Shown here: positions 2,937 through 61,495 of the stretch, in pieces
Layout: every line of letters begins with the position of its first letter
Position numbering within the stretch: position 1 is the first letter of the stretch
Source: Methylobacterium variabile
GTDB lineage: Bacteria; Pseudomonadota; Alphaproteobacteria; Rhizobiales; Beijerinckiaceae
Assembly: GCF_001043975.1 (NCBI RefSeq)
Contig: NZ_LABY01000047.1
Location: 1 to 64,000 of the forward strand
DNA length: 64,000 bases
Direction of reading: 5' to 3'
Program-made: the position numbers and the translations under genes
Notes under the pieces: generated by a model
Databases searched by the model: none
What the model was told of the DNA's origin: nothing
The model's input: only the letters and a program-made list of their open reading frames with translations

Positions 2937-2937
2937 C

Positions 2938-10370: not shown

Positions 10371-10428
10371 ACCGCGCGCGATGCGGCGGAGGTGCGATCC
10401 CGCGCCCGCCGATACCGGAGCCCAATGC

Positions 10429-11367: not shown

Positions 11368-11433
11368 CGGGGCGGCGAGTCAGTCTCGTCGTCGCGATCC
11401 GAGCGGCTGCGTCACGGTGCGGGACAGTCAATC

Positions 11434-11551
11434 ATACCGCCGCGCCTTCGAACGGACCCGTTCGGAGGCGCAAGGCAAGCCCGAACGGGCGCCGGCGCTG
11501 ATGCGCCGGACGCCTTCGCATCGACGTGTCGATGCGAAGGCGCGAGGGTAT
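11434..11551 (+). repeat. Dispersed long repeat, family A, copy 2
   Basis: A 118-base element almost identical to 25815-25932 and, inverted, to 4796-4914. It consists of three inverted repeats in series. It lies between the converging acetamidase gene and the livF gene of the opposite operon, where it could act as a bidirectional transcript-end structure. Confidence 0.85.
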
Positions 11552-11590
11552 CAGAGATTTTTCCGACCTCTGTCGCTCTCACACCCTCCT

Positions 11591-11628
11591 CGTCATCCCG
11601 GAGCCGCGGAGCGGAACCCGGGATGACG
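11591..11628. repeat. REP-like palindrome, family B
   Basis: The arms CGTCATCCCG and CGGGATGACG bracket a GC-rich centre. The motif recurs at 15246, 25963, 26073, 27733, 27832, 31329 and 45308, always between genes. Confidence 0.75.
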
Positions 11629-11681
11629 CAGGAGACGATTGGTATTCGTCTCAGATAGACAGCATCAATCGACCAACGAAG

Positions 11682-45461: not shown

Positions 45462-46145
45462 TCAGGCGCTCGCGAGGCGCTGGAGCAGGCGCTCGGCCGC
45501 CGGTCCCGACGAGGCCGGGTTCTGCCCGGTGATCAGCAAGCCGTCCGTGACCACGTACGGCTCCCAGTCACCGGCCTTCGAGAACTTGCCGCCGTTCCGC
45601 TTGAGCTCGTCCTCGACGAGGAAGGGGACCACCCGGGTGAGGCCCACGGCCTCCTCCTCGGTGTTCGTGAAGCCGGTGACGTCCCTGCCCTCGACGAGCG
45701 GCTTCCCGCCGGGTGCCGTCGCATGACGCAGGACGCCGGGGGCGTGGCAGACCAGGGTGACGGGCTTGCCGGCCGCGAGCGTCGTCTCGATCAGCCGTAC
45801 CGAGGCGGGATCCTCGGCCAGGTCCCAGAGGGGTCCGTGGCCCCCGGGATAGAACACGGCGTCGAAGCCGTCGTGGGTGAGCCCGTCGAGCCGGACCGTG
45901 TCCGCCAGGACAGCGTCGGCCTCGGCATCGGCCTCGAAGCGGCGGGTCAGGTCCGTCTGGAAGCCCGGCTCGCTGCTCTTGGGGTCGAGCGGCGGACGGC
46001 CGCCCTTGGGTGATGCGAGCACGACCTCGGCGCCCGCATCCTTGAACACGTAGTAGGGAGCGGCGAGTTCCTCCAGCCAGAAGCCGGTCTTCCGGCCGGT
46101 GTCACCAAGCGTGTCGTGGGAGGTCAGCACCATCAGGATCTTCAT
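45462..46145 (-). CDS. DJ-1/PfpI family protein (class I glutamine amidotransferase-like)
   Basis: A 227-residue protein of the HchA/YhbO-like branch. Cys133 sits in the nucleophile elbow LVCHAPG, Glu26 (FWLEELAAPY) is the expected partner, and YPGGHGPLWDL forms the oxyanion region. Family members detoxify methylglyoxal or repair glycated proteins, or act as chaperones or isonitrile hydratases. It is preceded by a small gene and a TetR gene that share an operator, so an electrophile-responsive role is plausible. The start is ATG 46145. Confidence 0.9.
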   Translation of the reverse strand: MKILMVLTSHDTLGDTGRKTGFWLEELAAPYYVFKDAGAEVVLASPKGGRPPLDPKSSEPGFQTDLTRRFEADAEADAVLADTVRLDGLTHDGFDAVFYPGGHGPLWDLAEDPASVRLIETTLAAGKPVTLVCHAPGVLRHATAPGGKPLVEGRDVTGFTNTEEEAVGLTRVVPFLVEDELKRNGGKFSKAGDWEPYVVTDGLLITGQNPASSGPAAERLLQRLASA

Positions 46146-46232
46146 CGTTGCTCTCCTTGGTGGAGGGGGAGTGAGTCGGTGGGTCGCCGGGGACGCCGTT
46201 CCGGGCGGTCCGCGCCTTCGTTCGCGAGCCGG

Positions 46233-46481
46233 TCAGTTGCGGTGGGATAACGCCCTGTCGGCGCTGCGCTCCGCGGTCTTCTCGCGCGCTTGCCGGACTT
46301 CGGTTCGTTCAAGCGCCGCGTAGGCACGGCGGATCTCCTGGGGCGCGGCCATGCGGACGGCGCCGATGACCTCCAGGGTGATGCGCTCGTCGGCCGAGGC
46401 CCCTGAGCCGCTGAACAGGGCGGCCCCGAGTTCGGCGAGCAGGAGGTAGGGGATGACACCGTGCGTGGGTTGGAAGGTCAT
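46233..46481 (-). CDS. Small hypothetical protein in the DJ-1 operon
   Basis: An 82-residue protein beginning MTFQPTHGVIPYLLLAELG, with GAGGAG ribosome-binding site upstream. A short hydrophobic stretch (about 9-25) is followed by a charged Arg/Glu-rich helix ending DRALSHRN. An EVIGAVRMAAPQEIRRAYAALE segment suggests a helical bundle. No family was recognised. It lies 87 bases upstream of the DJ-1 gene on the same strand and directly downstream of an operator at 46511-46524, so it is probably the first gene of that transcript. Confidence 0.55.
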   Translation of the reverse strand: MTFQPTHGVIPYLLLAELGAALFSGSGASADERITLEVIGAVRMAAPQEIRRAYAALERTEVRQAREKTAERSADRALSHRN

Positions 46482-46510
46482 GACCTCTTCTCCTCGTGAT
46501 TGCGTCTGAG

Positions 46511-46524
46511 TAGACCGGTCGTCT
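46511..46524 (-). promoter_or_regulatory. TetR operator upstream of the small protein/DJ-1 operon
   Basis: TAGACCGGTCGTCT, identical to 47192-47205 upstream of the TetR gene. It lies 30 bases before the small gene's start. The motif resembles the TAGACC-type boxes of NemR-like repressors. Confidence 0.75.
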
Positions 46525-46568
46525 CGAAAGACAGCGAACATGAGCGGGTGTCGCCCCGGCTGCCGCGG

Positions 46569-47171
46569 TCAGGCTGGTTGCAGGTTGAGGATGCGCCGCG
46601 TCGCGGCCATCGCGGCCTCGAACGGCGCATCGGTGCGTTCGATCTTCGCCATGAGGCTCGCGCCGAGCCACAGGTGATAGAGCGTCTCGGCGACCTCGCG
46701 CGGAGTGCCCTCGACCCGCAGCGAGCCGTCGCCGGCGCCCGCCTCGATGGCGCGGGCCACCCGGTCGATGATCCCGGCCGTCCCGGCCTTGAGCGCGAGG
46801 CGCATGGGTTCGGACAGGTCCGAGACCTCCGCCGCGAGCTTCACCGCGAGGCACTTGCGCTGGTAGTCGATGCTGCCCTGCGTCGCCTGCCACTTGCGCC
46901 AGTAGTTCATCAGGCGCTCGGCTTCGCTGAGGCCAGGCTCCGCGAGGGTCGCATCGATATCAGCCAGGTAATCCTCGAAGTAGCCCGTCAGCAACGCCTC
47001 GCCGAAGGCCTCCTTCGAGCCGAAATAGTGGTAGAACGAGCCCTTCGGGACCCCGGCCGCGGCCAGGATCTCATTGAGGCCGACGCCGGAGAAGCCCTTC
47101 GCGCCCACGATCCGGTGAGCGGTGTCGAGGATGCCCTGCCGGGTGTCGGTGTTGCCGCTCACGTGTGCCAT
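46569..47171 (-). CDS. TetR-family regulator (NemR/AcrR-like) of the DJ-1 operon
   Basis: A 200-residue repressor with a helix-turn-helix at about 10-55 (VGLNEILAAAGVPKGSFYHYFGSK, here in part) and a C-terminal domain with a cysteine in YQRKCLAVKLAAEVSD. The same region carries the redox or electrophile-sensing Cys in NemR-type regulators. Identical operators lie 20 bases before its own start (47192) and before the small gene (46511), which is strong evidence that it represses both itself and the DJ-1 transcript. Electrophiles such as methylglyoxal or quinones are the likely signals, by analogy. Confidence 0.88.
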   Translation of the reverse strand: MAHVSGNTDTRQGILDTAHRIVGAKGFSGVGLNEILAAAGVPKGSFYHYFGSKEAFGEALLTGYFEDYLADIDATLAEPGLSEAERLMNYWRKWQATQGSIDYQRKCLAVKLAAEVSDLSEPMRLALKAGTAGIIDRVARAIEAGAGDGSLRVEGTPREVAETLYHLWLGASLMAKIERTDAPFEAAMAATRRILNLQPA

Positions 47172-47191
47172 GACGCTGACATAGGCGCAAT

Positions 47192-47206
47192 TAGACCGGT
47201 CGTCTA
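47192..47206 (-). promoter_or_regulatory. TetR autoregulatory operator
   Basis: TAGAC-CGGTC-GTCTA is a perfect 5-5-5 palindrome 20 bases upstream of the TetR start, sharing 14 bases with the site at 46511. Confidence 0.75.
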
Positions 47207-47834
47207 GTGGTCGCTGGAATCATTCGTGCCGACCCGACGTTCCGTACCCGAGAGTGCGGGGCGAGCCGGTGCCCCGCCGCGGAAGCAGGTACCGGCGCGG
47301 TGGCGGTCCGCGCGAGCCCTGCTCTTGTCGCCCAGAGCGAGGTCCGCTCCTCGATTTCGGAGGGGCAGTCCCCGGAGCATCCCACCGACGCTTCGAGGAG
47401 CGGCATGCGGCGGATGCGCGGGCCGGTCGCGGCGAACACCGCGTCGACGGTGGCCGTGACCGGTCCACCTTCCGGGCCCGCCTGCCGCCAACCCAGGCCG
47501 CGGTCACGAGGTGCCGGACGGGGACACGGCTGACCGGCTCCCGCCACCCGGGACAGCCTGCGCCTGGGAGGTGCAAGGCGGCCCGGGTACGACGGGGATT
47601 GACCGGCGCCGGCCTCCTCTCCCTACAAGCCGCGAGAGAAGGACGCAGGCACCTTTCCGATCTTTGCGGGCAGCCCTGCATGGAAGATCACGCCAATCAG
47701 ACACCTTCGCATATCTCACCAACATGAACGTATGCACCCACGCATATCCGGTGACAATTTGCTTCTTATGTAAATTTATTACATCTGAATCAGGTGCCGC
47801 CCCTCGCAAACGGCCCTTGTTCGGAGATCATCAG
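47207..47834. other. No supported gene
   Basis: Over 600 bases with open frames on both strands but no recognisable motif or start. The last 100 bases become AT-richer and contain AACATGAACG and TTTATTACATC-like words, a likely promoter zone for the broken secreted-protein gene at 47835. Confidence 0.4.
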
Positions 47835-48448
47835 ATGTTTTACCGACTTGTCTTTGCCAGCATTGTCCTCGCCGCAGCCACTGGCAGCGTCCGTGCGCAG
47901 CAGACGCATACGATCGACGTGTGGCGCGCGCGGATCGAAGTCCTGAACCAAGGCTCCGGGGGCTTGTTCGGCGACGGTGCGCCGCTCCTGCGCGATGCGG
48001 ACGTTGCGACCGCCGCGACGAATCCCGGGGCTTCGGCAGCCCGGCCCTGGCGCACATCACTGCTGCCCGTCTGGACAGGCGTAGGCAGCGGCCTTGAACT
48101 CACGCCGGGAGCGTCCCGTGGTCGGAGCAACGCGAAAGACCGGCCCGCCCCTGATTCGACCGCTCGATTTACGCCACCGCCGACCTCGCCGAGCGAAGCC
48201 GGCTCCTTCATGGTGTCGCGCGGCTGGTGGATTCCGACCCGCTCTGGCGCGTGCCGACGCGCCTGCTCGACGATCCCGGGACGGCCCTCACGACCTTGGC
48301 CGCGTCCGTCGCAATCATCGCCGACACGCCGCCGACCGGCGGCACGGCGATCGCCGCGGACGGCACCGTGTTCGTCAGCGACACCGCAGCGCAGCGCGCC
48401 CGTCGTCAGGCCACCGACCGCTCGCTGATTCCAGCCGAACTGGGATGA
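47835..48448 (+). pseudogene. Frameshifted gene for a secreted protein, possibly MRJP/dopachrome tautomerase-like
   Basis: The frame from ATG 47835 begins with a clean signal peptide (MFYRLVFASIVLAAATGSVRA) and about 80 plausible residues, then loses sense. Another frame picks up from about 48150 with SIYATADLAERSRLL, LWRVPTRLLDDPG and AIAADGTVFVSDT, the pattern of the last blades of major-royal-jelly-type beta-propeller proteins. Most of the propeller (normally about 350 residues) is missing, so this is a decayed gene with an internal deletion and frameshift. The family assignment is tentative. Confidence 0.4.
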
Positions 48449-49057
48449 CCACGCAGTCCGCGTACCGTTCAACGATGCGCTCGACGCTACAATCGGACAT
48501 CGAAAAAGGAATGTACATCTCGTCAACGAGGGGGAGGATGATTCAATCCATCACCAGTCCGATACAGTCCACATTCATCCACGTGAAATGAGCAGAAATC
48601 ACCGATCCGTGACCCGCCCAGTTCCGTCCCCGACATGGGGCAGGCAGAAAATCACCGACAATATGTCATCGACTATGACAATTTCTACTCGGCTCTTCCA
48701 AATGAATAACACTTGATAGCATCTGGCGCTCCTTCTCGGAAACCCGCGTCCCGGATTGGCGCCTCATTGTGTCGAAAATCCAGAATATTCAAATCATCCG
48801 GAGCGTAATCGCTGTCGTATCCTGCAGTGACTAACGGTATGACAGAAGGTATCTGGAAGAAACGGGACGGGGAGAGACTGCCCGCTTGAGACTTACCTGA
48901 CACGGAAAGATGCTCTACAGCTAGACGGTGCGGCGGCGATCGGCCGAGCGTCTCGGCAGGGCTTGTCTCTTACCGAGGTGTCATCCGGCATTTCCATTTC
49001 CCCGCAGCGGATTCGGTTCACCAGGCTCGCGCCCGCATTACGGACTCGTAGGACAAA
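48449..49057. other. Moderately AT-rich gap, no supported gene
   Basis: About 600 bases upstream of the transporter-thioesterase gene. The stretch around 48590-48900 is AT-rich for this genome. No gene, RNA or repeat was recognised; it probably holds a promoter. Confidence 0.4.
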
Positions 49058-50866
49058 ATGCTGTCTCAATTCCTTCGCTCAGCGACTTGGGCGCCGACGA
49101 TCGCTCTGTCGTGGTTTTGGGGGCTCGGCTTCTTCTATGCGATCCATGTCACCCTGACATACGGCTGGCTCGGATTTGTGGCGTTCGCTGTGCCGAATGC
49201 CGTCGGTCTGGGCCTGTTCGGGTGGATCCTTGGTGCACCGGGGCGAAGCCCCGACAAGATCACGGCCACCATTCAGGGGCCTTACGCCGTCCTGTTCCTC
49301 GCCTGTCAGTTCCTCGCAGTTGCGATCACGATCTTCGGCTTCGCCGCCTATGCCTGGACACCCGTGTTCGGGCGCGAGACCGTGTTCGGCCTGATCGCGC
49401 TCGTCCTCGTGGCCTGCTCGATCGGCCATGCGCTGCCGCTTCGCAGCATCAGGACCCTGCACGGCATCGCCCTGATCCCCGCCGTGTGCGCAGGCCTCGT
49501 GGCGCTCGCAGGGGTGGCGACAGGGCTTGGCGGTTCGGGAGTTCCGATCTCGTCCTTCGACGCGCGCTTCTACGGCCTCGCGCTTCCCTCGCTGGTCGGC
49601 TTTCTGCTCGGCCCGTGGATGGACGTGCAGCAGTGGCAACGCGCGGTCGAGATCCAGCGGGCGGGCGCCTCCGTCCGGCTGGCCTACGCGACCGGAGCGA
49701 TCCTCTTCCTCGGCCTGCTGACGATCAACGCCCTGCTCGCTTCCGCCGCGGGCCTCGGTGAACCGGTCCTGTCGTCCGATGGCTTGCCGGGCGCGTACGC
49801 CGCCGTCGCGCAGGCGATCGCACGGGATCACCTGACCGGCGTGACGGTTGCCTTCCTGATCTGGACGGTCGTGGCGGCGGCCACCACGATCGACAGCTTC
49901 TATTGCGCGACGCGCTGGCTGATGATGGCCATCACGACGCGCAGCAACTCACCGCTCCTCGCCTTCGTGCCGGCAGCTCTGGTGTCGTCCCCGATCTGGA
50001 TCCTGCTCGCAGCCCTCGCGGCTGCGGTCGCTGCGAGCCAGCTCAATCTGTCGCTGATGTACTTGATGATGCCCTTCGCGACGATCCTCGTCGGAGGGGC
50101 GGCCTGCCTCGTCTGCGAGACGCTCGGGGCGTCCCGGCGCTACGACCCGGTCCTCAGCTACATGATCGGTCTGGTCGCCGGCCTGATATTCTTCACCGGC
50201 TACGTCGCACCGAACTGGCTGTTTCTGGCCATGGCGCCGCTCATCGGTCTCATCGGTGCGCTGCCGATGATCGCCGAACTGCTCGGATTGGGCGGCGAGC
50301 CGGCGACCCGTTTGCCGGTACCGGCCGACGAGCCTGCCGTGAAGACGGTGGTCGTCACCGTGTCCCGGGACGAGGCGATCGCTTCGCACGGATTCGATGG
50401 ACAATGGTTTGTCATGAACCTGATCCCGACCTACGACGACACCAACTCGGTCGGGAATGTCTATTTCGCGAATTACGTGCGCTGGGTAGGCAAAGCGCGA
50501 GAGCTGTTCTTCAACACGTGCATGCCCGATTTCGATCTGAAAGCGACCGATTTCTATGTGCTGACGAAAACGTTCCAGCATGATTTCCGGCGAGAGGCGG
50601 TCGAGTTCGAGCCCGTCTCGGTCCGCGTCCGCATCGCGAGCCACAACCGGAAATTCGTGACGCTGGCGCATGAAATCCACAGCGAAATCAACGGCCTGCT
50701 CGGTCGAGGCGAGCAGTCGCTGATGTTCGTGGATACGGTCCAGTATCGTCCGCTGGATATCCCGCGAACCATCATCGAAGGCTTTCTTCCCTACTGGCCC
50801 AAGTCTTCTCCACACGCGGCTTCGCCCGCGCCGGGTTCGTTGGAAGTCAAGAATCTCAGCGCCTAA
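49058..50866 (+). CDS. Membrane transporter-like protein fused to a hotdog thioesterase domain
   Basis: A 602-residue protein with two unlike halves. Residues about 10-425 are hydrophobic with roughly twelve membrane segments and the look of a sodium:solute symporter-type transporter (GPWMDVQQWQRAVEIQRAG, TIDSFYCATRWLMM). Residues about 445-590 are soluble and match the 4HBT/hotdog acyl-CoA thioesterase fold, with YDDTNSVGNVYFANYVRWVGKARELFF carrying the catalytic Asp-type motif, and RVRIASHNRKFVTLAHEIHSE. The thioesterase half would face the cytoplasm. Coupling transport to release of an acyl group is possible but not shown. The gene stands alone; the following GGDEF-EAL gene is on the other strand, 6 bases away. 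Confidence 0.8.
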   Translation: MLSQFLRSATWAPTIALSWFWGLGFFYAIHVTLTYGWLGFVAFAVPNAVGLGLFGWILGAPGRSPDKITATIQGPYAVLFLACQFLAVAITIFGFAAYAWTPVFGRETVFGLIALVLVACSIGHALPLRSIRTLHGIALIPAVCAGLVALAGVATGLGGSGVPISSFDARFYGLALPSLVGFLLGPWMDVQQWQRAVEIQRAGASVRLAYATGAILFLGLLTINALLASAAGLGEPVLSSDGLPGAYAAVAQAIARDHLTGVTVAFLIWTVVAAATTIDSFYCATRWLMMAITTRSNSPLLAFVPAALVSSPIWILLAALAAAVAASQLNLSLMYLMMPFATILVGGAACLVCETLGASRRYDPVLSYMIGLVAGLIFFTGYVAPNWLFLAMAPLIGLIGALPMIAELLGLGGEPATRLPVPADEPAVKTVVVTVSRDEAIASHGFDGQWFVMNLIPTYDDTNSVGNVYFANYVRWVGKARELFFNTCMPDFDLKATDFYVLTKTFQHDFRREAVEFEPVSVRVRIASHNRKFVTLAHEIHSEINGLLGRGEQSLMFVDTVQYRPLDIPRTIIEGFLPYWPKSSPHAASPAPGSLEVKNLSA

Positions 50867-50872
50867 GCTTCC

Positions 50873-53221
50873 TCAAGCCGCATGGATCTTCTCGTGCCGA
50901 AGTCCCTGTCTGCTTGCCAGGGCTTCGGCCTCCTTGGCCGGAACGGGTCTGCTGAACAGGTAGCCTTGAAGCTCGTGGCAGCCCAGGTTCAGGAGGCAAC
51001 GGCGCTGCGCCTCGGTCTCGACGCCTTCGGCGATCACCGTCATCTTGAGGCTCGTTGCCAGATCGATGATCGCGCGGACGATTGCTGCGCCGCTCTGTTC
51101 GTGCGGGAGGTCCTTGACGAAGCTCTGGTCGATCTTGATCTTGTTGAAGGCAAGGCGTCGAAGGTAGCTCAGGCTCGAGTAGCCGGTCCCGAAATCGTCC
51201 AGGGACAGGCTCACGCCCATCTCGCGCAGTTCGGCGAGCGTGGCCTTGATGGCGGGCGTCGCTTCAAGGAATACCGACTCCGTGATCTCCAGTTCGAGCC
51301 GCGGGGCGGCCAGGCCGCTGTCCCGCAGGGCGGAGCGGACCAGAAGCGGCAGATCCGAGTGGCGGAACTGGATCGGTGACAGGTTGACGGCGACGCTGAT
51401 GTCGCTCGGCCATTCGGTCGCGATCGTGCAGGCCTGCCGCAGGATCCACTCACCCATCGGTATGATGATGCCCGTTTCCTCGGCCAGCGGGATGAACTCG
51501 GCAGGCGAGACGAAGCCGCGCGTCGGATGGCGCCAGCGCACGAGGGTTTCGAAGCACACGACACGCCCGTCCGTCGTCACGATGGGCTGGAAGTGGAGGA
51601 GGAACTCGTTTCGGTCGAGGGCGCCCCTGAGATCGGTCGACAATGCGCGGCGTGCCTCGATCCGCTCGTCCATTTCGGCTTCATAGAAGCAGTATCCGCC
51701 GCGGCCCTCGCTCTTCGTCCGGTAGAGTGCGAGATCGGCTCGCCGCAGGATCTCCAAGGAACCGTTCTGCGGGGCGACGGCGATGCCGATGCTGACCCCT
51801 ATGCTCAAGCGCATGCTGTCGATGGCAAAAGGCGACGCGATCGCCTCGACGATGTCGCTGGCCAACACCGCGAGCGTATGGCGGTCCCGCGCCGCCCGTC
51901 CGGTCGCCAGAACCGCGAATTCGTCTCCGGCGAGGCGGGCGAGGTGCACGTCCGACGACGCGAAGGCCCGCAGGCGTTCGGCAACGGCCCGAAGCAGCCT
52001 GTCGCCGGCGGCATGCCCGAACGTGTCGTTCACGCTCTTGAACTCATCGAGATCGAGAGCGAGCACGGCGAAACTCTCGCTCGCTCCGAGCCGGTCGCGC
52101 GCGTTCTCCAGGAGCTTCTGGAACAGGACCCGATTCGGGAGGTCGGTCAACGAATCGTGCAGCGCGAGATAGGACAGGCGCTCCTCGGAGCGCCGCTTCT
52201 CTGTCACGTCGGACCCCACGCCGCGATACCCCGCGAAAGTGACGCCGTTGGTGAAGGTCGGCTTTCCACTCAACATCCACGTGCGCTGCTCGCCCGCGAT
52301 GGTGAGCGGCAGGATGAGGTTGCGGAAGGCGCGGCGCTCCGCGATGCAGGCCCACAGAACGGTACCCGGATGCCCATCGGGCTGAGCGACGGCAGGAAGC
52401 AGCAATCGTTCCAGGGGCAAGCCGAGGAGCTGGCGCTCCGACGAGCGGGCGACCTCGATCAGCCTGGTCGAAACATGCTGCAGGCGGAGATCGGCGTCCG
52501 TTTCCCAGAGCCAGTCGCTTGCATTCTCCTCGAACTCGTTGAGCAGCAGAGAGGTGAATTCCTGCTGGCGCTCCAGGTCGACCTGCGCAACGACACGCAT
52601 CTTCAGGAGGCGGCTGAGATGGAGGATCGTGAAGCAGATGAAGGCCGCATAGAACGTCAGAAGGATGGCGACGTACGTGTAGAACAGCTCTCCTGTCGCC
52701 GCCAAGCCGACGAAGGATCCGACGATGATGACGCTGGAGAAGCCGATGGCAACACGCGGCAGCACGGCCGCGCTCATGCCTGTCGCGATCAGGCCTGCAC
52801 AGCTGGAGGCGACGAGGAGACGGCCATGCGAATCGGCTCCGGCAAACAGCATGATCGGAATCGAGGCGAGGAGACAGCCATACGCATACGCGACCAGGAC
52901 GGCGAGGCGGACGAACGAGACGGGGACTTCACGCGGCTTGGGGCGCGACCGCCAGAGCCAGCATTGTTGCAGCACCACGACCGCCAGCGGCAGGATGGCG
53001 GCCTCCAGCCCGGCCAGGTAGGCGCGATTGGCGGGACTCCAGAACAGGTAGACGATGACCTGCACGACGCTGAGGCTGACGAGCACCGTGAAAGGAACGA
53101 GACGGAGAGCAACGTCGAGCTGCTCCACGCGCACCCGCTCCCCCAGGGTGGCGTCGAGGGCCTGGTTCTCGCGATCGGTGTCGATCAGGAACGAAATGAG
53201 CATCTCACGTAACACAGGCAC
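50873..53221 (-). CDS. Membrane-bound GGDEF-EAL cyclic-di-GMP protein with PAS domain
   Basis: A 782-residue signalling protein. An N-terminal membrane domain (about 30-210) has six or so helices, then a PAS-like domain (about 225-345), GGDEF (about 355-510) and EAL (about 525-770). The cyclase signature reads AGDEF, a common active variant. The phosphodiesterase signature reads ETL instead of EAL in FETLVRWRHP, with the other residues (LEITESV, DDFGTGYSSL, KIDQSFV, IAEGVET) intact. It could make or break cyclic-di-GMP and thereby control motility or biofilm. It is transcribed alone; its 5' gap is AT-rich. An in-frame ATG at 53203 is an alternative start. Confidence 0.92.
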   Translation of the reverse strand: MPVLREMLISFLIDTDRENQALDATLGERVRVEQLDVALRLVPFTVLVSLSVVQVIVYLFWSPANRAYLAGLEAAILPLAVVVLQQCWLWRSRPKPREVPVSFVRLAVLVAYAYGCLLASIPIMLFAGADSHGRLLVASSCAGLIATGMSAAVLPRVAIGFSSVIIVGSFVGLAATGELFYTYVAILLTFYAAFICFTILHLSRLLKMRVVAQVDLERQQEFTSLLLNEFEENASDWLWETDADLRLQHVSTRLIEVARSSERQLLGLPLERLLLPAVAQPDGHPGTVLWACIAERRAFRNLILPLTIAGEQRTWMLSGKPTFTNGVTFAGYRGVGSDVTEKRRSEERLSYLALHDSLTDLPNRVLFQKLLENARDRLGASESFAVLALDLDEFKSVNDTFGHAAGDRLLRAVAERLRAFASSDVHLARLAGDEFAVLATGRAARDRHTLAVLASDIVEAIASPFAIDSMRLSIGVSIGIAVAPQNGSLEILRRADLALYRTKSEGRGGYCFYEAEMDERIEARRALSTDLRGALDRNEFLLHFQPIVTTDGRVVCFETLVRWRHPTRGFVSPAEFIPLAEETGIIIPMGEWILRQACTIATEWPSDISVAVNLSPIQFRHSDLPLLVRSALRDSGLAAPRLELEITESVFLEATPAIKATLAELREMGVSLSLDDFGTGYSSLSYLRRLAFNKIKIDQSFVKDLPHEQSGAAIVRAIIDLATSLKMTVIAEGVETEAQRRCLLNLGCHELQGYLFSRPVPAKEAEALASRQGLRHEKIHAA

Positions 53222-53668
53222 CCCATGGCGAAAATATTTGATACCAGATCTGAACTCGCTATTTTATCAACGCTCCATCCATTCACATTTTTCAGTCGCA
53301 CAATGAACTTTCTGGATTAAATAATAGTTAATTCATTGCAGAACATTTGATATGTTCGGATTGCAATATATTATCTGCCAAAATATCGCTGCACATCCAT
53401 GTCTCCGGCATGACGTGTGTTGCACATCGCGGAAATGTCGCGGTCGTTCGATCCGGCTGGCCGCCGTGCTGGCATCCGGCTGATCATCGCGGTCGCGCCG
53501 ACACCGGCCTGCATGGCTGGATGCCGCCCTCGCGGCGGACCGGCCGCACCCGCCGCCACAGCGGCACGTCGCGCCGTGGGACCCCAGGCGGCCGACGAAC
53601 CGCGCAGCTTGCGTTAGCACCTGCAGCACGCACATAAGCCTGGGCGTAGAGATCCGGGAGGCGATTCG
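53222..53668. other. AT-rich divergent gap between the GGDEF-EAL and Crp genes
   Basis: A 447-base intergenic stretch whose first 180 bases are AT-rich, with many A and T runs. The second part is GC-rich and contains no supported gene. It should hold the promoters of both divergent genes. Confidence 0.5.
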
Positions 53669-54349
53669 ATGAGCGCGCCGCACGGGCTGGTCCGGCTCCT
53701 GGCCGCCAACGCGTTCTTCGCCGAGATGGGTGAGGAGGCGATCACGGCCATCGCTGGCCTTTGCCGGACGCGCAGCCTCGCGCGACACGAGACGCTGTTC
53801 CAGAAGGGCGATCCGGGCGACGCGCTCTACGCTCTGCGCCGCGGCCAGGTCCGCATCGCAACAGGCACCGCCGACGGGCGATCCGTGACGCTCAACCTCC
53901 TCGGGCCGGGCGACGTCTTCGGCGAGATCGCCCTCCTCGACGGCCACCCGCGCACGGCGGAGGCGATCGCGCTCGAAGCGACCGAGCTCTTCGTCATCGA
54001 GCGGCGGGACTTCCTCGGCCTCCTCACGCGCGACGCGGCGATGGCGATCCGGATCATCGGGTTCCTGTGCCAGCGACTGCGCTGGATGAGCGATCGGATG
54101 GAGGAGGCCACCCTGCTCCCCCTCGACACCCGGCTGGCGCGGCGCCTGGTCATGCTGTCCCAGGATTACGGTTCGGAGATCCAGGTGACGCAGCACGAAC
54201 TCGCCGCTTTCGTCGGCGCGGCGCGGGAGAGCGTCAACCGCGTCCTTCAGGGCTGGCGCCGCTCCGGTATCATTGATCTCGGCCGTTCGCGTGTGACCGT
54301 GAAGACCGCCCAGCGCCTGGCCGCGATCGGCGAGCAGCCGCGGATCTGA
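53669..54349 (+). CDS. Crp/Fnr-family transcriptional regulator, cAMP-binding type
   Basis: A 226-residue regulator. The cyclic-nucleotide-binding domain (about 10-120) has LLGPGDVFGEIALLDGHPRTAEA, keeping the FGE and RTA residues that hold the phosphate and ribose of cAMP. The dimer helix is followed by an HTH_Crp domain (about 150-220) with TQHELAAFVGAARESVNRVL. No Fnr cysteine cluster is present. GGGAGG is a good ribosome-binding site. It is the first gene of a three-gene unit with a FecR-domain protein and an adenylate cyclase, which would supply its ligand. Confidence 0.92.
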   Translation: MSAPHGLVRLLAANAFFAEMGEEAITAIAGLCRTRSLARHETLFQKGDPGDALYALRRGQVRIATGTADGRSVTLNLLGPGDVFGEIALLDGHPRTAEAIALEATELFVIERRDFLGLLTRDAAMAIRIIGFLCQRLRWMSDRMEEATLLPLDTRLARRLVMLSQDYGSEIQVTQHELAAFVGAARESVNRVLQGWRRSGIIDLGRSRVTVKTAQRLAAIGEQPRI

Positions 54350-54372
54350 GAGCAGCAGAAGGGGTTCACCGC

Positions 54373-54894
54373 ATGAGATTTTTCGCCTGCGCGGCGAGCG
54401 CCCTCGCCATGACCCTCGTCGCGGGAACGGCTCTGGCCCAGACGCGCTGCGCCGAGGAGACGCGGTTCGATCCGCCCTTGCGCGTCCTTCGCTGCACCGA
54501 TGGACTGGTGCTCGAGACCGAGCAGGGAAGCCGGCTGCAGCCGATCGACCGGAACGGCGACGGGCGTCTCGAGGGCGCCGAGCTCGGCGGCCGCGCCGTC
54601 CTCGTCACGCTGCCCCCGGGCCGGCGTGTCCAACGGGACGGCTTCCAGATCCTGACGCCCCACGCGATCGCCTCGGTGCGCGGCACCGTCTACGCCGTCG
54701 ACGTGACCGGCGACCGGACGTCGGTCTTCGTATCGCAGGGGCGCGTCGCCGTCGCGCGGCGGCGCGCCCCGGAGACATCGGTCACGCTCGGCGCGGGCGA
54801 AGGGGTCGACGTCGACGCGGATCAGGGCCCGCTCGAGGTGCGGCGCTGGCCGCAGGAGCGCGTCAGGGCCCTGCTCGAGCGCTTCGGGCGCTGA
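54373..54894 (+). CDS. Secreted FecR-domain protein
   Basis: A 173-residue exported protein with a signal peptide (about 1-22, cleavage after ALA). The mature part has a short EF-hand-like or dockerin-like loop, DRNGDGRLEGAEL, then a FecR-type beta domain (about 85-150) with ILTPHAIASVRGTVYAVDV and VFVSQGRVAVARR. Stand-alone periplasmic FecR proteins next to CHASE2 adenylate cyclases are frequent in alphaproteobacteria and probably feed signals to the CHASE2 sensor. It starts 23 bases after the Crp gene and ends 14 bases before the cyclase gene. Confidence 0.85.
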   Translation: MRFFACAASALAMTLVAGTALAQTRCAEETRFDPPLRVLRCTDGLVLETEQGSRLQPIDRNGDGRLEGAELGGRAVLVTLPPGRRVQRDGFQILTPHAIASVRGTVYAVDVTGDRTSVFVSQGRVAVARRRAPETSVTLGAGEGVDVDADQGPLEVRRWPQERVRALLERFGR

Positions 54895-54908
54895 CGGTCG
54901 TCGGTCCG

Positions 54909-56774
54909 ATGCCGACTGCCGAGACCAGACGGCGCCGCCGAAGCGACCGGCGCTTCGCGCTGGTCGCCCTTGCCGCCGTGCTCGGCTGGAGCGGCTGGCT
55001 CGTGCACCAGCACGTCACCGGGCGCGCGACGCCCCTCGACCGCGTCGAATCGGCCCTCACGGACCTGCGCCTGCGGCTGGCCGGACCGCGCCAACCACCC
55101 GCCGACGTCGTGATCGTCGCCATCGACGACGAGGCCGTTCGGCGCGAGGGAGGGTTTCCGGTCTCGCGCGCGGCGATGACGCGCCTGATCGAGACGATCG
55201 CGGCGGCACACCCGCGCACCCTCGCCGTCGACGTCCTGTTCCTGGAAGCCGGCCGCCAGCCGGAGGCGGACCGCGCGCTCGGCGCCGCTCTCGCCAAGGT
55301 GCCGGCGGTCCTGGCCGCGGCGGCCGTCTTCGGCGGCAGCACGAGCGAGGATGGCATCCCGGTCGCCGCCGCGCTGCACCGGCCGACCCCGGAGATCGGC
55401 CGCGCGGCGACGTCCGGCCTCGTCAATGTCTCCGAGGATGCCGCCGGTGTCCCGCGGCACCTCCCCCTCGTCGTGAGGACGGGCGAGGACGTCGCCGTGG
55501 CCTTCGTGCTGCGTGCGGCCGCCCTGGCGGCGCGGAGCGATCCGGTCGTCAGCCAGGATGCCGTGCGAATCGGGACCGCGACGATCCCGCTCGACCTCGG
55601 CCGCCACCTCCCTCTCCGTCCCTACGGGCCGCGGCGCACGATCCCGACGGTGAGCGCCGCCGCGCTCGTCGACGGAACGGTTCCGCTCTCCGACCTGACG
55701 AACCGCATCGTCGTGGTCGGCGTCACGGCGCTGGGCGGGAGCGACACCTTCGCCACGGCCTTCGATCCGGTCATGCCGGGCGTCGAGCTCCTGGCGACCG
55801 GCATCGCCCACCTGACGACAGGCGGTGGGCTGGTCCGCGATGCGGGCGTGCGGCGGCTCGACGCCGTCGCGGCCGTCGGCCTCGCCGCCGCGGCCGCGCT
55901 CCTGATTGCTCTGGCACCGCCCGGCCCGGCGATCCTCCTCGTGCTCCTCCTCCTGGCGGCGTGGCTGGCGGCCGGCGCCGTCGCGTTCGCCTGCGGCCTG
56001 TGGTGGAGCGCCGCCCTGCCGCTCGCGGCGGCCGGGATTCCGGCGCTGGCCTGCGCGGCCGCGCGACAGGCCCTCGACCGCCGCAGGGCCACGGCGCTGG
56101 CGCGGTCGGAAGCGGCGCTGCGCCGGCTGCAACCCGCCGCGCTGGCGGACCGCCTCGCCTGGGATCCGGCCTACTTGGCCGTGCCCATCGCCCGCGAGAT
56201 CCCGGTGCTGTTCATCGACCTCACCGGGTTCACCCGCCAGAGCGAGCGTCTCGGCCCGGGCCGCACCCGCGCGGTGCTCAAGTCGTTCCACGACCTCGTC
56301 GATGAAACGGCGGCCCGGCACGGAGGCCTCGTCGTCAACTTCATGGGCGACGGCGCCATGATCGTGTTCGGCGCGCTCGATCCTGATCCCGCCTCCGGCG
56401 CCCATGCGGTCGCGGCGGCGGAAGACCTCGTTGCCCGCACCGCCGACTGGATCGCGCGCGATCCCGAGCTGGCCGGCGCCGGGCGCGCCCTCGACGTGCG
56501 GATCGGCGCGCATTATGGGCCGGTGATCCTCTCGCGGCTCGGCAGCGACACCAACCAGCACATCACGGCGACGGGCGACACGGTCAACGTCGCGAGCCGC
56601 CTGCTCGCGGTGGCCTCGGAGGCGAGAGCCCGCCTCGCCGTCAGTGCCGACCTCCTGGCAGCAGCCGGCATCGACGCACCGGGCGACCGCTTCGACGTGC
56701 GGCAGGCGACGGCCATCCGCGGCCGCGCGCAGACCCTCGACGTGTGGTTGGGGCGCGGCCGGCGGCCGTCATAG
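54909..56774 (+). CDS. CHASE2-domain class III adenylate/guanylate cyclase
   Basis: A 621-residue membrane cyclase. After an N-terminal membrane helix (about 16-35) comes a periplasmic CHASE2 sensor (about 40-310, with VVIVAIDDEAVRREGGFPV), two or three membrane helices (about 315-395), and a class III cyclase domain (about 425-605). The metal-binding Asp437 lies in FIDLTGFT, a second in MGDGAM, and ATGDTVNVASRL is the transition-state region. It should make cAMP in response to a periplasmic signal; the FecR protein upstream may be the partner and the Crp protein the target. Confidence 0.93.
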   Translation: MPTAETRRRRRSDRRFALVALAAVLGWSGWLVHQHVTGRATPLDRVESALTDLRLRLAGPRQPPADVVIVAIDDEAVRREGGFPVSRAAMTRLIETIAAAHPRTLAVDVLFLEAGRQPEADRALGAALAKVPAVLAAAAVFGGSTSEDGIPVAAALHRPTPEIGRAATSGLVNVSEDAAGVPRHLPLVVRTGEDVAVAFVLRAAALAARSDPVVSQDAVRIGTATIPLDLGRHLPLRPYGPRRTIPTVSAAALVDGTVPLSDLTNRIVVVGVTALGGSDTFATAFDPVMPGVELLATGIAHLTTGGGLVRDAGVRRLDAVAAVGLAAAAALLIALAPPGPAILLVLLLLAAWLAAGAVAFACGLWWSAALPLAAAGIPALACAAARQALDRRRATALARSEAALRRLQPAALADRLAWDPAYLAVPIAREIPVLFIDLTGFTRQSERLGPGRTRAVLKSFHDLVDETAARHGGLVVNFMGDGAMIVFGALDPDPASGAHAVAAAEDLVARTADWIARDPELAGAGRALDVRIGAHYGPVILSRLGSDTNQHITATGDTVNVASRLLAVASEARARLAVSADLLAAAGIDAPGDRFDVRQATAIRGRAQTLDVWLGRGRRPS

Positions 56775-57454: not shown

Positions 57455-58378
57455 TCAGCCGCCCGCCTCCCGATCCGCCGGGACCGCCTCCGGAGCCTCC
57501 GCCCGCCGGACCAGGGCGGGGTCGACGAACAGGTCCGGCGCCAGGGCCGTGTCGGGATCGACGCGGTAGGCCGCGAAGTCGCTCACGCCCTCGGCGCGAA
57601 GGACGTCCTCATCGATGAGGAACTGCCCCGTGAAGGTGGAGGCCGGCTTCAGGACGATCCGGTAGGCGGCCTCGGCCACGATGTCGGGCGTGCGGCTGGC
57701 CCGCATCATCGCGTCGCCGCCGAGCACGTTGCGGACCGCCGAGGTCGCGATCGTCGTGAGGGGCCAGAGCGCGTTCGCCGCGATGCCGCGACCGCGCAGC
57801 TCCGCGGCGAGGCCCAGCACGCAGAGAGACATGCCGTACTTCGCCATCGTGTAGGCGAGGTGCGGCGCGAACCAGTCCGGCCGCAGATCGAGCGGCGGGG
57901 ACAGCGTCAGGATGTGGGGATTGGCGCTCCGCTTGAGGTGGGGCAGGGCGAGCTTGCTGACGAGGAAGGTCGCGCGCGCGTTGACCTGATGCATAAGGTC
58001 GAAGCGCCTCATGTCGGTCGACGGCGTGTCGGTCAGCTGGATGGCGCTGGCGTTGTTGACCACGATGTCGATCCCGCCGAAGCGCTCCGCGGTCCGGGCC
58101 ATGGCCTCGGCCACCTGCGCCTCGTCGCGCACGTCGACGACGAGCGGCAGCGCCGCGCCGCCGGCCTGCCGGATCTCCTCGGCCGCGCTGTGGATCGTGC
58201 CGGGCAGCCGGGGATGGGGCGCGTCGGTCTTCGCCGCGACCGCGACGTTGGCGCCGTCGCGGGCCGCCCTGAGCGCGATCGCGAGCCCGATGCCCCGCGA
58301 CGCGCCGGTGATGAACAGGGTCTTGCCCCGCAGGGTCTCGCCGCGCAGGTCGCGCGTCCCGCCGTGTCCGTCGCTCAT
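57455..58378 (-). CDS. Short-chain dehydrogenase/reductase, AtuB/HSDL2-like
   Basis: A 307-residue Rossmann-fold oxidoreductase: nucleotide motif TGASRGIG (24-31), NNAS (108-111) and the catalytic set Ser160, Tyr176 and Lys180 (YTMAK). The pattern RGKTLFITGASRGIGLAIA and LTLSPPLDL is close to HSDL2 and the AtuB protein of the citronellol pathway. It oxidises a secondary alcohol or hydroxyacyl-CoA with NAD(P). It overlaps the TetR gene by ATGA and is divergent from the acyl-CoA carboxylase genes, which suggests one pathway under one regulator. Confidence 0.88.
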   Translation of the reverse strand: MSDGHGGTRDLRGETLRGKTLFITGASRGIGLAIALRAARDGANVAVAAKTDAPHPRLPGTIHSAAEEIRQAGGAALPLVVDVRDEAQVAEAMARTAERFGGIDIVVNNASAIQLTDTPSTDMRRFDLMHQVNARATFLVSKLALPHLKRSANPHILTLSPPLDLRPDWFAPHLAYTMAKYGMSLCVLGLAAELRGRGIAANALWPLTTIATSAVRNVLGGDAMMRASRTPDIVAEAAYRIVLKPASTFTGQFLIDEDVLRAEGVSDFAAYRVDPDTALAPDLFVDPALVRRAEAPEAVPADREAGG

Positions 58379-59019
58379 GCTCTCCTCCCGCCGATCGCTG
58401 TCCAGAACAGGGCAAAGAAACGATCGATCTTGTCCGGTCCGGCGGCGCGCCCCGCGCCCATGCCGCCGAGGCCCGCGTGCTCGATGCCGCCGAAGAACAG
58501 GTCGCGCGCCAGGCCGAGGTCGAGCCCGGGCGCGATCTCGCCGGCCTCAATCCCCTCGCGCAGCAGGTCCGTCAGCAGGCGCGTGTAGCGCCGGTTGAGG
58601 GCCTGGAGGTCGCCGGCCGGATAGTCGGGTGCGGCGCGCAGCTCCCGCACCAGCAGCCGGCCGATCGCCGCCTCCTCGGCGAACAGGCGGAACTGCCGGG
58701 CGGTGAACCAGCGCAGGCGCGCCTCGGTGCCGGACAGCTCCGCCAGGGCGGCCTCGATCTCCCCGATCAGCGCGCCGTACCACTCGCCGATCACCCGGGC
58801 GAGCAGATCCCGCTTCGTCGGGGCGTAGAGGTAGAGCGTCCCCTCCGCGACCCGCGCGCGCCGCGCGATCTCGGCCACCGAGGTGCCCTCGAAGCCCCGC
58901 TCCTCGAACACGGCGCGCGCGGCCGCGACGATGTCGACCTCGCGGTCGCGGTTGTGCACCAGGGCCCGGCGCCGGCCGGGGGGCCGGTTCCGGAGCGGAA
59001 TGGGGATCTCGTCATTCAT
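58375..59019 (-). CDS. TetR-family regulator of the acyl-CoA carboxylase cluster
   Basis: A 214-residue regulator with helix-turn-helix (about 25-70: VFEERGFEGTSVAEIARRARV then GTLYLYAPTKRDLL, in parts) and a C-terminal effector domain. The ATG at 59019 was chosen since the divergent promoter lies right upstream; the frame is open beyond it. It is co-transcribed with the SDR gene (ATGA overlap). The operator at 59060-59074 covers the -10 region of the opposite carboxylase promoter, so it probably represses both sides until an acyl-CoA intermediate appears. Confidence 0.88.
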   Translation of the reverse strand: MNDEIPIPLRNRPPGRRRALVHNRDREVDIVAAARAVFEERGFEGTSVAEIARRARVAEGTLYLYAPTKRDLLARVIGEWYGALIGEIEAALAELSGTEARLRWFTARQFRLFAEEAAIGRLLVRELRAAPDYPAGDLQALNRRYTRLLTDLLREGIEAGEIAPGLDLGLARDLFFGGIEHAGLGGMGAGRAAGPDKIDRFFALFWTAIGGRRA

Positions 59020-59030
59020 GATCCCGACAG

Positions 59031-59074
59031 TTGACAGGACCCGGCGCGCTGTCAAGATAATGAGCGACGCTCAT
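59031..59074 (+). promoter_or_regulatory. Divergent promoter with TetR operator
   Basis: TTGACA (59031-59036) and GATAAT (59056-59061) form a sigma70-like promoter, with a somewhat long 19-base spacer, reading into the carboxylase operon. A perfect palindrome ATGAGCG-A-CGCTCAT (59060-59074) overlaps the -10. TTGACAG also forms an inverted repeat with CTGTCAA (59049-59055), giving a possible -35 for the opposite direction. Confidence 0.65.
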
Positions 59075-59100
59075 AATGCGATGACCCAGGGAGAGAGACG

Positions 59101-60711
59101 ATGCCGCCGATCCTGTCCGGGGTGGATCCCGGCAGCCCGGAGGGCTGCGCCAACCGGGCGGCACACCTCGCCCTGATCGAGCGGATCCGTCTGCTGGAAG
59201 CGCGGGTCGCCGCCACCTCGGCGCGCGCCGAGACGCGGTTCAAGGCGCGCGGCCAGCTCCTGCCGCGGGAGCGGGTCGGCCTGCTCCTCGACGCCGAGGC
59301 GCCCTTCCTCGAACTGTCGCCGCTCTGCGGCCTCGGCCTGCACGAGGACGACGGCGAGGACGAGGTCTACGGCGGCGGCTGCATCGCCGGCATCGGCTTC
59401 GTGTCCGGCGCGCGCTGCGTGGTGCTGGCGAGCGATTCCGGCATCAAGGGCGGGGCGGTCCATCCTCTCGGGGTCGACAAGCAGCTGCGCGCCCAGGAGA
59501 TCGCGCTCCAGAACCGGCTGCCGCTGATCCAGCTCGTCGAGAGCGCCGGCGCCAACCTGCTGCTCCAGTCCGAGATGTTCGTGCGCGGCGGCGGCATCTT
59601 CGCCGGGCTGGCGCGGCTCTCGGCGGCGGGCGTGCCGGTGATCTCGGTGGTGCACGGCTCGAGCACGGCGGGGGGCGCCTACCAGACCGGGCTTGCCGAC
59701 TACGTCGTGATGGTGCGCGGCCGCTCGAAGGTCTTCCTCGCCGGGCCGCCGCTCCTGCGCGCCGCGACCGGCGAGATCGCGGACGACGAGGCGCTCGGCG
59801 GCGCCGAGCTGCACTGCGTCACCACCGGGCTCGGCGAGTACCTGGCCGAGGACGACCGGGACGCGCTGCGGATCGCCCGGGAGATCGTGGCGGCGATCGG
59901 CTGGGCGGCGGCCCCGGCCTCCCGCGCCGGGCCTGAGCCGCTGCACGACGCCGAGACGCTCCTCGCCGCGGTGCCGCCGGACCACCGCCGCCCCTACGAC
60001 GTGCGCGAGGTGCTGGCCTGCCTGGTCGACGGCTCGGACGTCCTCGACTTCAAGCCGCTCTACGGCCCGCACACGGTCTGCGCCCATGCGAGCGTCGCGG
60101 GCCACCGGGTCGGGATCCTCGGCAACAACGGACCGATCGACGCCGCCGGCGCGACGAAGGCGGCGCAGTTCATCCAGCTCTGCTGCCAGGCCGGACTGCC
60201 GCTCGTGTTCCTGCAGAACACCACCGGCTTCATGGTCGGCACCGAGGCCGAGGCGTCCGGCATCGTCAAGCACGGCTCGAAGATGATCCAGGCGGTCACC
60301 AACGCGACCGTGCCGAAGATCACGATCCAGATCGGCGGCTCGTTCGGCGCCGGGCATTACGGCATGTGCGGCCGGGCCTTCGGGCCGCGCTTCATCTTCG
60401 CCTGGCCGAACAGCCGCACCGCCGTGATGGGCGGCGAGCAGGCCGCCCGGGTGATGACGATCGTCGGCGAGGAGGCGGCCCGGGCCCGCGGGCGCGAGCC
60501 CGACGCGGCCCGCCTGGCGACGCAAGGGGCGGCGGTGAGCGCCGCCTACGACCGGGAGAGCACCGCGCTCTTCGCCACGGCCCGGCTGTGGGACGACGGC
60601 CTGATCGATCCCCGCGACACCCGCCGGGTCCTCGCCTTCTGCCTCGACACCTGCCGCGAGGCCGAGAGCCGGCGGCTCAACCCCAACACCTTCGGAGTGG
60701 CCCGGCCGTGA
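59101..60711 (+). CDS. Acyl-CoA carboxylase carboxyltransferase (beta) subunit, methylcrotonyl/geranyl-CoA type
   Basis: A 536-residue carboxyltransferase. The N half has VLASDSGIKGGAVHPLG, VESAGANLLLQSEMF and GSSTAGGAYQTGLADY; the C half has GILGNNGPIDAAGATKAAQFIQLC, LQNTTGFMVG and IGGSFGAGHYGMCGRAFGPRF. These are typical of the 3-methylcrotonyl-CoA/geranyl-CoA carboxylase branch rather than propionyl-CoA carboxylase. It transfers CO2 from biotin on the alpha subunit (61496) to a branched enoyl-CoA. The following hydratase starts in a GTGA overlap. Substrate choice between leucine-type and terpenoid-type acyl-CoA cannot be settled by eye. Confidence 0.92.
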   Translation: MPPILSGVDPGSPEGCANRAAHLALIERIRLLEARVAATSARAETRFKARGQLLPRERVGLLLDAEAPFLELSPLCGLGLHEDDGEDEVYGGGCIAGIGFVSGARCVVLASDSGIKGGAVHPLGVDKQLRAQEIALQNRLPLIQLVESAGANLLLQSEMFVRGGGIFAGLARLSAAGVPVISVVHGSSTAGGAYQTGLADYVVMVRGRSKVFLAGPPLLRAATGEIADDEALGGAELHCVTTGLGEYLAEDDRDALRIAREIVAAIGWAAAPASRAGPEPLHDAETLLAAVPPDHRRPYDVREVLACLVDGSDVLDFKPLYGPHTVCAHASVAGHRVGILGNNGPIDAAGATKAAQFIQLCCQAGLPLVFLQNTTGFMVGTEAEASGIVKHGSKMIQAVTNATVPKITIQIGGSFGAGHYGMCGRAFGPRFIFAWPNSRTAVMGGEQAARVMTIVGEEAARARGREPDAARLATQGAAVSAAYDRESTALFATARLWDDGLIDPRDTRRVLAFCLDTCREAESRRLNPNTFGVARP

Positions 60712-61493: not shown

Positions 61494-61495
61494 CG

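What the first reader, a model, noticed from the sequence alone, without database searches (positions are those of the whole stretch)
49058..50866. Multi-pass transporter fused to a hotdog acyl-CoA thioesterase
One uninterrupted 602-codon gene joins a symporter-like membrane domain to a complete 4HBT/hotdog domain (YDDTNSVGNVYFANYVRW motif). Thioesterases are normally separate soluble enzymes. A transporter that carries its own thioesterase on the cytoplasmic side could couple export or import of a carboxylic acid or polyketide-like chain to CoA or carrier release. I know of no described system of this form.
Basis: partly seen in the sequence, partly recalled or inferred. Interest (0 to 1): 0.7.

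Follow-up and report, generated by a model that had tools for sequence, protein, structure and literature searches.

The report
Transporter-thioesterase fusion paired with c-di-GMP enzyme
Some Methylobacterium-like bacteria make one membrane protein that joins a sodium-symporter-shaped transporter to an enzyme that probably cuts fatty or polyketide chains from their carrier, and in most of them it sits tail-to-tail with a gene for a signalling enzyme, which suggests an undescribed chemical-signal module.

Summary
Window 49058-50866 encodes one 602-aa protein: a membrane half of about 12 helices with the SLC5/SSS (LeuT) fold (best VIA-align Z 31.9, human CHT1) and a hotdog domain predicted to be cytoplasmic. 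It is no sequencing error: I count the fusion in 32 genomes or records, and the hotdog motif is present in all 31 whose DNA reaches it. Among solved structures the hotdog domain is closest to the ACP-polyene thioesterases of enediyne synthesis (CalE7, SgcE10, EspE7, DynE7), ahead of YbgC-type acyl-CoA thioesterases. The two proteins' distance matrices correlate at r = 0.96 (20 gene pairs). In two distant genomes the fusion lies instead beside an iterative type I polyketide synthase. My best reading, inferred: the hotdog half releases a carboxylic acid from an acyl carrier, the symporter-like half carries or binds it, and the partner turns that into a c-di-GMP change. This resembles the convergent RpfF/RpfR (DSF) pair but is built from unrelated parts. 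Enzyme activity, transport and signal are all untested.

The parts
49058..50866 (+). fused gene, 602 aa (SLC5-fold membrane domain + hotdog thioesterase domain)
49058..50293 (+). membrane domain, residues 1-412, about 12 predicted helices, SSS/SLC5 (LeuT) fold, N and C ends predicted inside
50294..50383 (+). linker, residues 413-442, 0-71% identity to relatives and of low model confidence
50384..50812 (+). hotdog thioesterase domain, residues 443-585 (73-97% identity to 22 relatives)
50432..50512 (+). active-site stretch, residues 459-485, with N463 and R481, shared with enediyne ACP-polyene thioesterases
50873..53221 (-). convergent partner gene, 782 aa: 6TM-PAS-GGDEF-EAL; 6 bp lie between its stop and that of the fused gene
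52523..53152 (-). partner: six-helix membrane region (residues about 24-233)
52208..52516 (-). partner: PAS-fold domain (residues about 236-338)
   Evidence: Pfam PAS_4 only below cut-off
51701..52165 (-). partner: GGDEF domain (motif AGDEF; AGDEF or SGDEF in all 20 partners compared)
50945..51634 (-). partner: EAL phosphodiesterase domain; the motif residues checked (E, N, E, DD, K, E, Q) kept in 20 of 20

Best explanation
Shown: one protein joins an SLC5-fold transporter-like domain to a hotdog domain of the enediyne ACP-polyene thioesterase type, and in most genomes that have it the gene is convergent and co-inherited with a 6TM-PAS-GGDEF-EAL gene. Inferred: the hotdog domain, held at the inner face of the membrane, hydrolyses an acyl chain from a carrier (fatty-acid-synthase ACP, or a PKS ACP where there is one) and releases a carboxylic acid. 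The membrane half then carries that acid across the membrane or binds it. The partner senses the acid or its flux through its 6TM/PAS input and changes c-di-GMP, mainly through its EAL domain. In working principle this is like RpfF/RpfR, a thioesterase signal synthase with a PAS-GGDEF-EAL receptor encoded convergently, but the synthase is of an unrelated fold and a transporter-like domain is fused to it.
For: Fusion conserved: 31 of 31 sequences that reach it carry the hotdog motif. Hotdog 73-97% identical to the window's, membrane half 40-86%. Active-site stretch as in CalE7, SgcE10, EspE7 and DynE7. SLC5 fold; C-terminus predicted cytoplasmic. Partner directly downstream and convergent in 21 of the 27 loci, plus G175; gap -33 to 295 bp. 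No other gene cluster lies within five predicted genes of the fusion in more than 3 loci. Distance matrices of the two proteins correlate at r = 0.96 over 20 gene pairs, and the starred groups of the two trees do not conflict with each other. In 199 family genomes the five with the strongest match to the partner's input region include four of the five that have the fusion. Partner EAL residues intact in 20 of 20. Published precedents: rpfF and rpfR are convergent, and RpfR is a PAS, GGDEF and EAL protein whose phosphodiesterase activity is modulated by the fatty acid that RpfF releases from ACP (PMC6361424, PMC4504480, passages). Loss of the thioesterase YbgC lowers c-di-GMP in Shewanella to about 30%, and its D15N form does not restore it (PMC5479800, abstract and passages).
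Against: Pairing is not obligatory. The fusion occurs without the adjacent partner in L012, L013 and L018 (their genomes have only 36-38% identical paralogues elsewhere), in L027 (no match on that megaplasmid; the chromosome was not searched), G111, G025 (both genes, on different contigs), G314 and G548. A 53% identical partner occurs without the fusion nearby in G088, and G088 had no fusion match. Partner-like proteins in a wider sense are common: 65 of 199 family genomes match at E up to 0.001, among them fusion-free genomes of the same genus at 38%. The partner's PAS region matches PAS/LOV domains in general in the rows seen. No ligand, transport or enzyme data exist. The membrane half has no SSF sequence match, so its substrate and sodium site cannot be read off. 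SSS proteins are described as uptake systems (abstract of PMC7918813), while a released signal would need export. r = 0.96 partly reflects shared species history.
Confidence: 0.35

Rival explanations
1. Product-release and export enzyme of a lipid or polyketide pathway. The hotdog domain off-loads chains from an iterative type I PKS or fatty-acid synthase, and the membrane half moves the product; c-di-GMP regulates it only loosely.
For: In L033/L034 (G314, G548) the fusion lies beside an iterative PKS, an alpha-oxoamine-synthase-like aminotransferase (class by my reading; Pfam says Aminotran_1_2), a short-chain reductase and, in L034, capsule and export genes. The closest solved hotdogs serve iterative PKSs. 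The window's genome has a PKS of this type next to such an aminotransferase on contig C180. Of 14 other genomes (13 named Methylobacterium/Methylorubrum, plus G175 of the window's genus) with the fusion, 13 have a PKS 71-86% identical over the first 1000 residues, G947 being the miss.
Against: In the window's genome the PKS is on another contig. The Methylocapsa genome, G111 and 7 of 9 Aurantimonadaceae with the fusion have only short ketosynthase or acyltransferase matches; the other two, G940 and G941, have 36-41% PKS matches and G025 a 56% fragment. Whether the PKS is simply universal in Methylobacterium was not tested (searches failed). The conserved neighbour is a c-di-GMP enzyme.
Confidence: 0.27
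2. Transceptor: the SLC5 domain acts as an input sensor (as in CbrA and other SLC5-kinase fusions) and ligand binding or transport switches the hotdog domain on or off.
For: SSS domains fused to signalling domains are established, and not always linked to histidine kinases (PMC7918813, passages). A variable, low-confidence linker joins the halves.
Against: No PAS or kinase domain in the protein by Pfam. Hotdog domains are, to my knowledge, enzymes or ligand binders, not usual outputs.
Confidence: 0.2
3. Acyl-CoA salvage or uptake: the protein imports a carboxylate and the hotdog domain prevents or reverses its thioesterification.
For: Acyl-CoA genes near some loci: an acyl-CoA dehydrogenase next to L012 (scanned), with the same gene cluster next to L013 and L018, and biotin-dependent carboxylase genes near the window and L087.
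Against: These neighbours are not conserved. The hotdog domain matches ACP enzymes better than acyl-CoA enzymes among solved structures.
Confidence: 0.1

Closest known systems
RpfF/RpfR (DSF) signalling pair of Burkholderia and Cronobacter
   Same: Thioesterase-type enzyme encoded convergently with a PAS-GGDEF-EAL protein (PMC6361424, PMC4504480; passages).
   Different: RpfF is of the crotonase superfamily without a transporter, and RpfR is soluble. Here the enzyme is a hotdog fused to an SLC5-fold domain and the partner has six membrane helices.
Enediyne ACP-polyene thioesterases (CalE7, SgcE10, DynE7, EspE7)
   Same: Hotdog fold and the TN.VGNVY..-Y..W.G..RE stretch; two distant relatives of the fusion lie beside an iterative PKS.
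   Different: Those were solved as separate proteins without a membrane domain; 25-29% identity in the Foldseek rows; here fused and usually not beside a PKS.
SSS/SLC5 symporters (CHT1, DUR3, SiaT, vSGLT)
   Same: Fold of the membrane half over nearly its whole length (Z 22-32).
   Different: 10-15% identity, no SSF profile match, about 12 helices (the best alignment begins at CHT1 residue 49), C-terminal enzyme.
SLC5-STAC sensor kinases (CbrA, CrbS/MxtR)
   Same: SLC5 domain fused to a cytoplasmic domain (PMC7918813, passages).
   Different: The output is a histidine kinase there, a hotdog domain here.
YbgC of Shewanella oneidensis
   Same: YbgC-type thioesterase that affects c-di-GMP (PMC5479800).
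   Different: A separate tol-pal-linked protein. Its D15N form fails, whereas our protein has Asn natively at what I take, from memory of the YbgC motif and without an alignment here, to be the same position.

Membership tests
SSS/SLC5 symporter family | LeuT-type fold of the family | tested here: met
   VIA-align Z 31.9 to CHT1 and 29.8 to DUR3 over about 390 residues; other LeuT-fold families in the list reach 24.7.
SSS/SLC5 symporter family | sequence match to the SSF profile | tested here: not met
   No SSF hit at E up to 10 in any of 23 members. PF00474 searched over the own genome finds three other genes, not this one. hhalign against those three: probability 0.3% (that profile is shallow).
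SSS/SLC5 symporter family | sodium site and substrate transport | not testable with these tools
   No residue-level superposition or assay available.
Enediyne ACP-polyene thioesterase | hotdog fold with the TN.VGN...RE stretch | tested here: met
   motif in 31 of 31 sequences.
Enediyne ACP-polyene thioesterase | works with an iterative type I PKS | tested here: inconclusive
   PKS adjacent in G314 and G548, elsewhere in the genome in 13 of 14 Methylobacterium-type genomes and the own one, only short matches in Methylocapsa, G111 and 7 of 9 Aurantimonadaceae.
Enediyne ACP-polyene thioesterase | separate protein without a membrane domain | tested here: not met
   Fused wherever the membrane half is found and the contig reaches the hotdog. 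One genome, G020, has a 31% identical hotdog-only match.
YbgC/FadM acyl-CoA thioesterase (TIGR00051, TIGR02799) | curated score cut-off | tested here: not met
   32.7 versus 68.7 and 32 versus 141.35 bits.
RpfF/RpfR module | convergent gene for a PAS-GGDEF-EAL protein | tested here: met
   22 of 32 genomes or records directly, window included; G951 (L009) across a contig break.
RpfF/RpfR module | synthase of the crotonase fold | tested here: not met
   The domain is a hotdog.
RpfF/RpfR module | cis-2 fatty acid signal sensed by the PAS domain | not testable with these tools
   Needs chemistry.
SLC5-STAC sensor kinase | histidine kinase domains after the SLC5 domain | tested here: not met
   Only hotdog families found at significance.

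The most novel reading that the evidence does not exclude
A further design of fatty-acid-type signalling to c-di-GMP: one protein both cuts the signal acid from its acyl carrier and carries it through the membrane, and its convergently encoded 6TM-PAS-GGDEF-EAL partner is the receptor. It is functionally parallel to RpfF/RpfR but made of unrelated parts, and it has the built-in exit route that a 2015 review calls unknown for DSF signals (PMC4504480, passages).
Probability: 0.27. Interest if true: 0.85.

Novelty: new variant of a known kind. Interest (0 to 1): 0.6.

Why it matters
If true, it would show convergent evolution of thioesterase-to-c-di-GMP signalling and supply a candidate transporter for a fatty-acid-type signal; [quoted passage not shown] Even without the signalling reading, a transporter-fold domain that was found fused to an ACP-type thioesterase domain wherever its contig allowed a check is, as far as my searches reach, an undescribed domain architecture. 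It gives a directly testable case of whether thioester cleavage can be coupled to membrane transport.

Tried and rejected
Sequencing error or two genes: rejected, because the fusion is in frame in the relatives. Chance ORF: rejected for the same reason. PKS as the general partner: rejected as general, because the Methylocapsa genome, G111 and 7 of 9 Aurantimonadaceae show only short matches; kept as a rival. A match to rhizobial rkpI was considered from memory; the paper search on rkpG/H/I listed nothing that I used, and no such sequence was compared. Viral contigs: no relative. Rfam, 46000-54000: none at gathering scores. Promoter and terminator scan: nothing convincing between the two genes. 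Sequence-level link to SSF: none. Composition as a sign of transfer: in the window the pair has GC3 0.82/0.83 against a median of 0.93 in 36 other predicted genes, but genes were picked partly by high GC3, and it is not general (17 of 27 loci in that direction, mean difference 0.02). Horizontal transfer of the pair: not claimed, since the unrooted trees can also be read without it; one unstarred fork of the partner tree (L019 with four others, 81/72) conflicts with a starred pair (L019, L021) of the other tree. RpfR and its PAS: not among the rows seen, which excludes nothing.

Full report
OBSERVATION. The ORF at 49058-50866 (+) is open for 602 codons. Pfam finds only 4HBT_2 (460-572, E 1.2e-11) and 4HBT. 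Scanning 23 members at E up to 10 finds 4HBT_2 and 4HBT in 23 of 23; the best family that is not a hotdog one reaches E 0.029 in one member.

THE FUSION IS REAL. A genome-contig scan gave 25 distinct loci with relatives, 47-86% identical, titled Methylobacterium, Methylorubrum, Methylocapsa, Aurantimonas, Aureimonas, Jiella and Fulvimarina. The M. extorquens AM1 megaplasmid carries a 45.5% identical copy. G532 and G027 are the genomes of L021 and L014 and are not counted again. With the window this makes 32 genomes or records. The hotdog motif stretch is present in 30 of 30 relatives examined and in the window; L023 ends before it. Within the family the gene is rare: 5 of 199 genomes, own included, have the full protein; a sixth match (G020) covers only the hotdog part at 31%. 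With the membrane half alone as profile, 5 of 397 order genomes and 2 of 398 phylum genomes match, own included in both, and the five genomes concerned all have the full fusion. The hotdog half is 73-97% identical to the window's across 22 relatives, the membrane half 40-86%, the linker 0-71%.

THE MEMBRANE HALF. AlphaFold2 (pLDDT 80.3, pTM 0.68) shows helices that I read as 12 membrane spans, and a low-confidence linker at 416-441. VIA-align ranks SLC5 structures first: CHT1 Z 31.9 (rmsd 3.7, 395 residues), DUR3 29.8, SGLT1 26.4, SiaT 25.4; other LeuT-fold families follow from 24.7 down. By sequence there is no SSF match: none at E up to 10 in 23 members, not among the three SSF genes found in the own genome, and no hhalign match to those three. 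Positive charges (13 inside, 3 outside, for the assumed topology) put both ends, hence the hotdog domain, in the cytoplasm.

THE HOTDOG HALF. Foldseek and HMMER both rank CalE7, SgcE10, EspE7 and DynE7 above YbgC and 4-hydroxybenzoyl-CoA thioesterases (in Foldseek YbgC chains are mixed in from rank 12). They share the TN.VGNVY...Y..W.G..RE stretch with our protein. One of these structures is listed as EspE7 mutant R35A, and in the alignment its Ala falls on the Arg of the RE pair, our R481. That this Asn and Arg serve catalysis is recalled; the CalE7 mechanism paper is not held. YbgC models score below cut-off.

THE PARTNER. In the window a 782-aa gene runs convergently, 6 bp away (50873-53221, minus). 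It has six long helices and a PAS fold (model pLDDT 83.5; PAS/LOV domains and DosP among the hits), then GGDEF and EAL. Of the 27 loci (L002 to L027 and the window), 21 have it as next gene downstream in the same convergent orientation, with a gap of -33 to 295 bp; L003's is cut by the end of the locus. G175 has it too, giving 22 of 32. In L009's genome (G951) the partner lies next to a 25-residue 3' remnant of the fused gene on another contig, and in L023's genome (G947) an 85.5% identical partner lies at a contig end. The other 8 lack it next door: L012, L013 and L018 (only 36-38% paralogues), L027 (no match on the megaplasmid; chromosome not searched), G111 and G025 (in G025 both genes, different contigs), and G314 and G548 (none). 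G088 has a 53% identical partner without a fused gene. In a wider sense such proteins are common: 65 of 199 family genomes match the partner's input region at E up to 0.001. The five best matches are in G000, G175, G027, G088 and G025, four of which have the fusion. No other gene cluster lies within five predicted genes of the fusion in more than 3 loci. Distances of the two proteins correlate at 0.96 over 20 gene pairs. The starred groups of the two trees do not conflict with each other; one unstarred fork of the partner tree (81/72) conflicts with a starred pair of the other. EAL motif residues are intact in 20 of 20; the GGDEF motif reads AGDEF or SGDEF.

THE OTHER CONTEXT. In G314 and G548 the fused gene is in a cluster with an iterative type I PKS (in L033: KS, AT, DH, ER, KR and carrier domains, and a methyltransferase match below cut-off), an aminotransferase that I read as alpha-oxoamine-synthase-like, and a short-chain reductase; L034 also has capsule and polysaccharide-export genes. 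The window's genome has such a PKS (42% identical) and aminotransferase (53%) on contig C180. Of 14 other genomes with the fusion (13 named Methylobacterium/Methylorubrum, and G175 of the window's genus), 13 have a PKS 71-86% identical over the first 1000 residues, G947 being the miss. The Methylocapsa genome, G111 and 7 of 9 Aurantimonadaceae show only short ketosynthase or acyltransferase matches; G940 and G941 have 36-41% PKS matches and G025 a 56% fragment. So such a PKS cannot be the general substrate source. Whether it is universal in Methylobacterium, with or without the fusion, was not tested (searches failed).

MECHANISM. Shown: domain content, predicted fold, topology by charge, conservation, pairing. 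Inferred: release of an acid from an acyl carrier, its binding or passage by the membrane half, and reading by the partner. [quoted passage not shown] passages). In Shewanella, loss of the thioesterase YbgC lowers c-di-GMP and the D15N form does not restore it (PMC5479800; abstract and passages). SSS domains fused to signalling domains are reviewed in PMC7918813 (passages), in whose main text the word thioesterase does not occur.

NOVELTY. Searches for such a fusion in print found none in what they listed (10 of 67 papers shown; 10 of 34; 1 of 1, unrelated); the library holds only open-licence papers. I rate it a new variant of a known kind, because its parts and the probable principle each have precedents.

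Noticed in passing
L043 (G000:C180), 1240-11947: Iterative type I PKS (2485 aa) followed by an aminotransferase read as alpha-oxoamine-synthase-like, with a formyltransferase-like and a short-chain reductase gene on the other strand; a similar PKS is in 13 of 14 Methylobacterium-type genomes searched. It recalls (from memory) the rhizobial rkp genes.
   Followed up: partly
window 48985-49060: A stretch just ahead of the fused gene is alike in four close relatives (L002, L003, L006, L024) and partly in two others (L004, L025), perhaps a promoter.
   Followed up: no
window 47172-49057: About 1.9 kb upstream of the fused gene with only doubtful short ORFs; no Rfam match.
   Followed up: partly
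window 49058-53221: The gene pair has GC3 of 0.82-0.83 against a median of 0.93 for 36 other predicted genes of the window; not general in relatives.
   Followed up: yes
window 53669-56774: Beside the pair lie a CRP-type regulator gene and a gene for a CHASE2 protein with an adenylate/guanylate cyclase domain.
   Followed up: no
L012, L013, L018: Here a gene of another cluster, in L012 a 653-aa protein with acyl-CoA dehydrogenase domains, takes the convergent position instead of the GGDEF-EAL gene.
   Followed up: partly
window 57455-63451; L087 2093-11972; L083: Biotin-dependent acyl-CoA carboxylase-like genes lie within about 10 kb of the pair, or of the lone partner in L083; probably chance.
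   Followed up: partly
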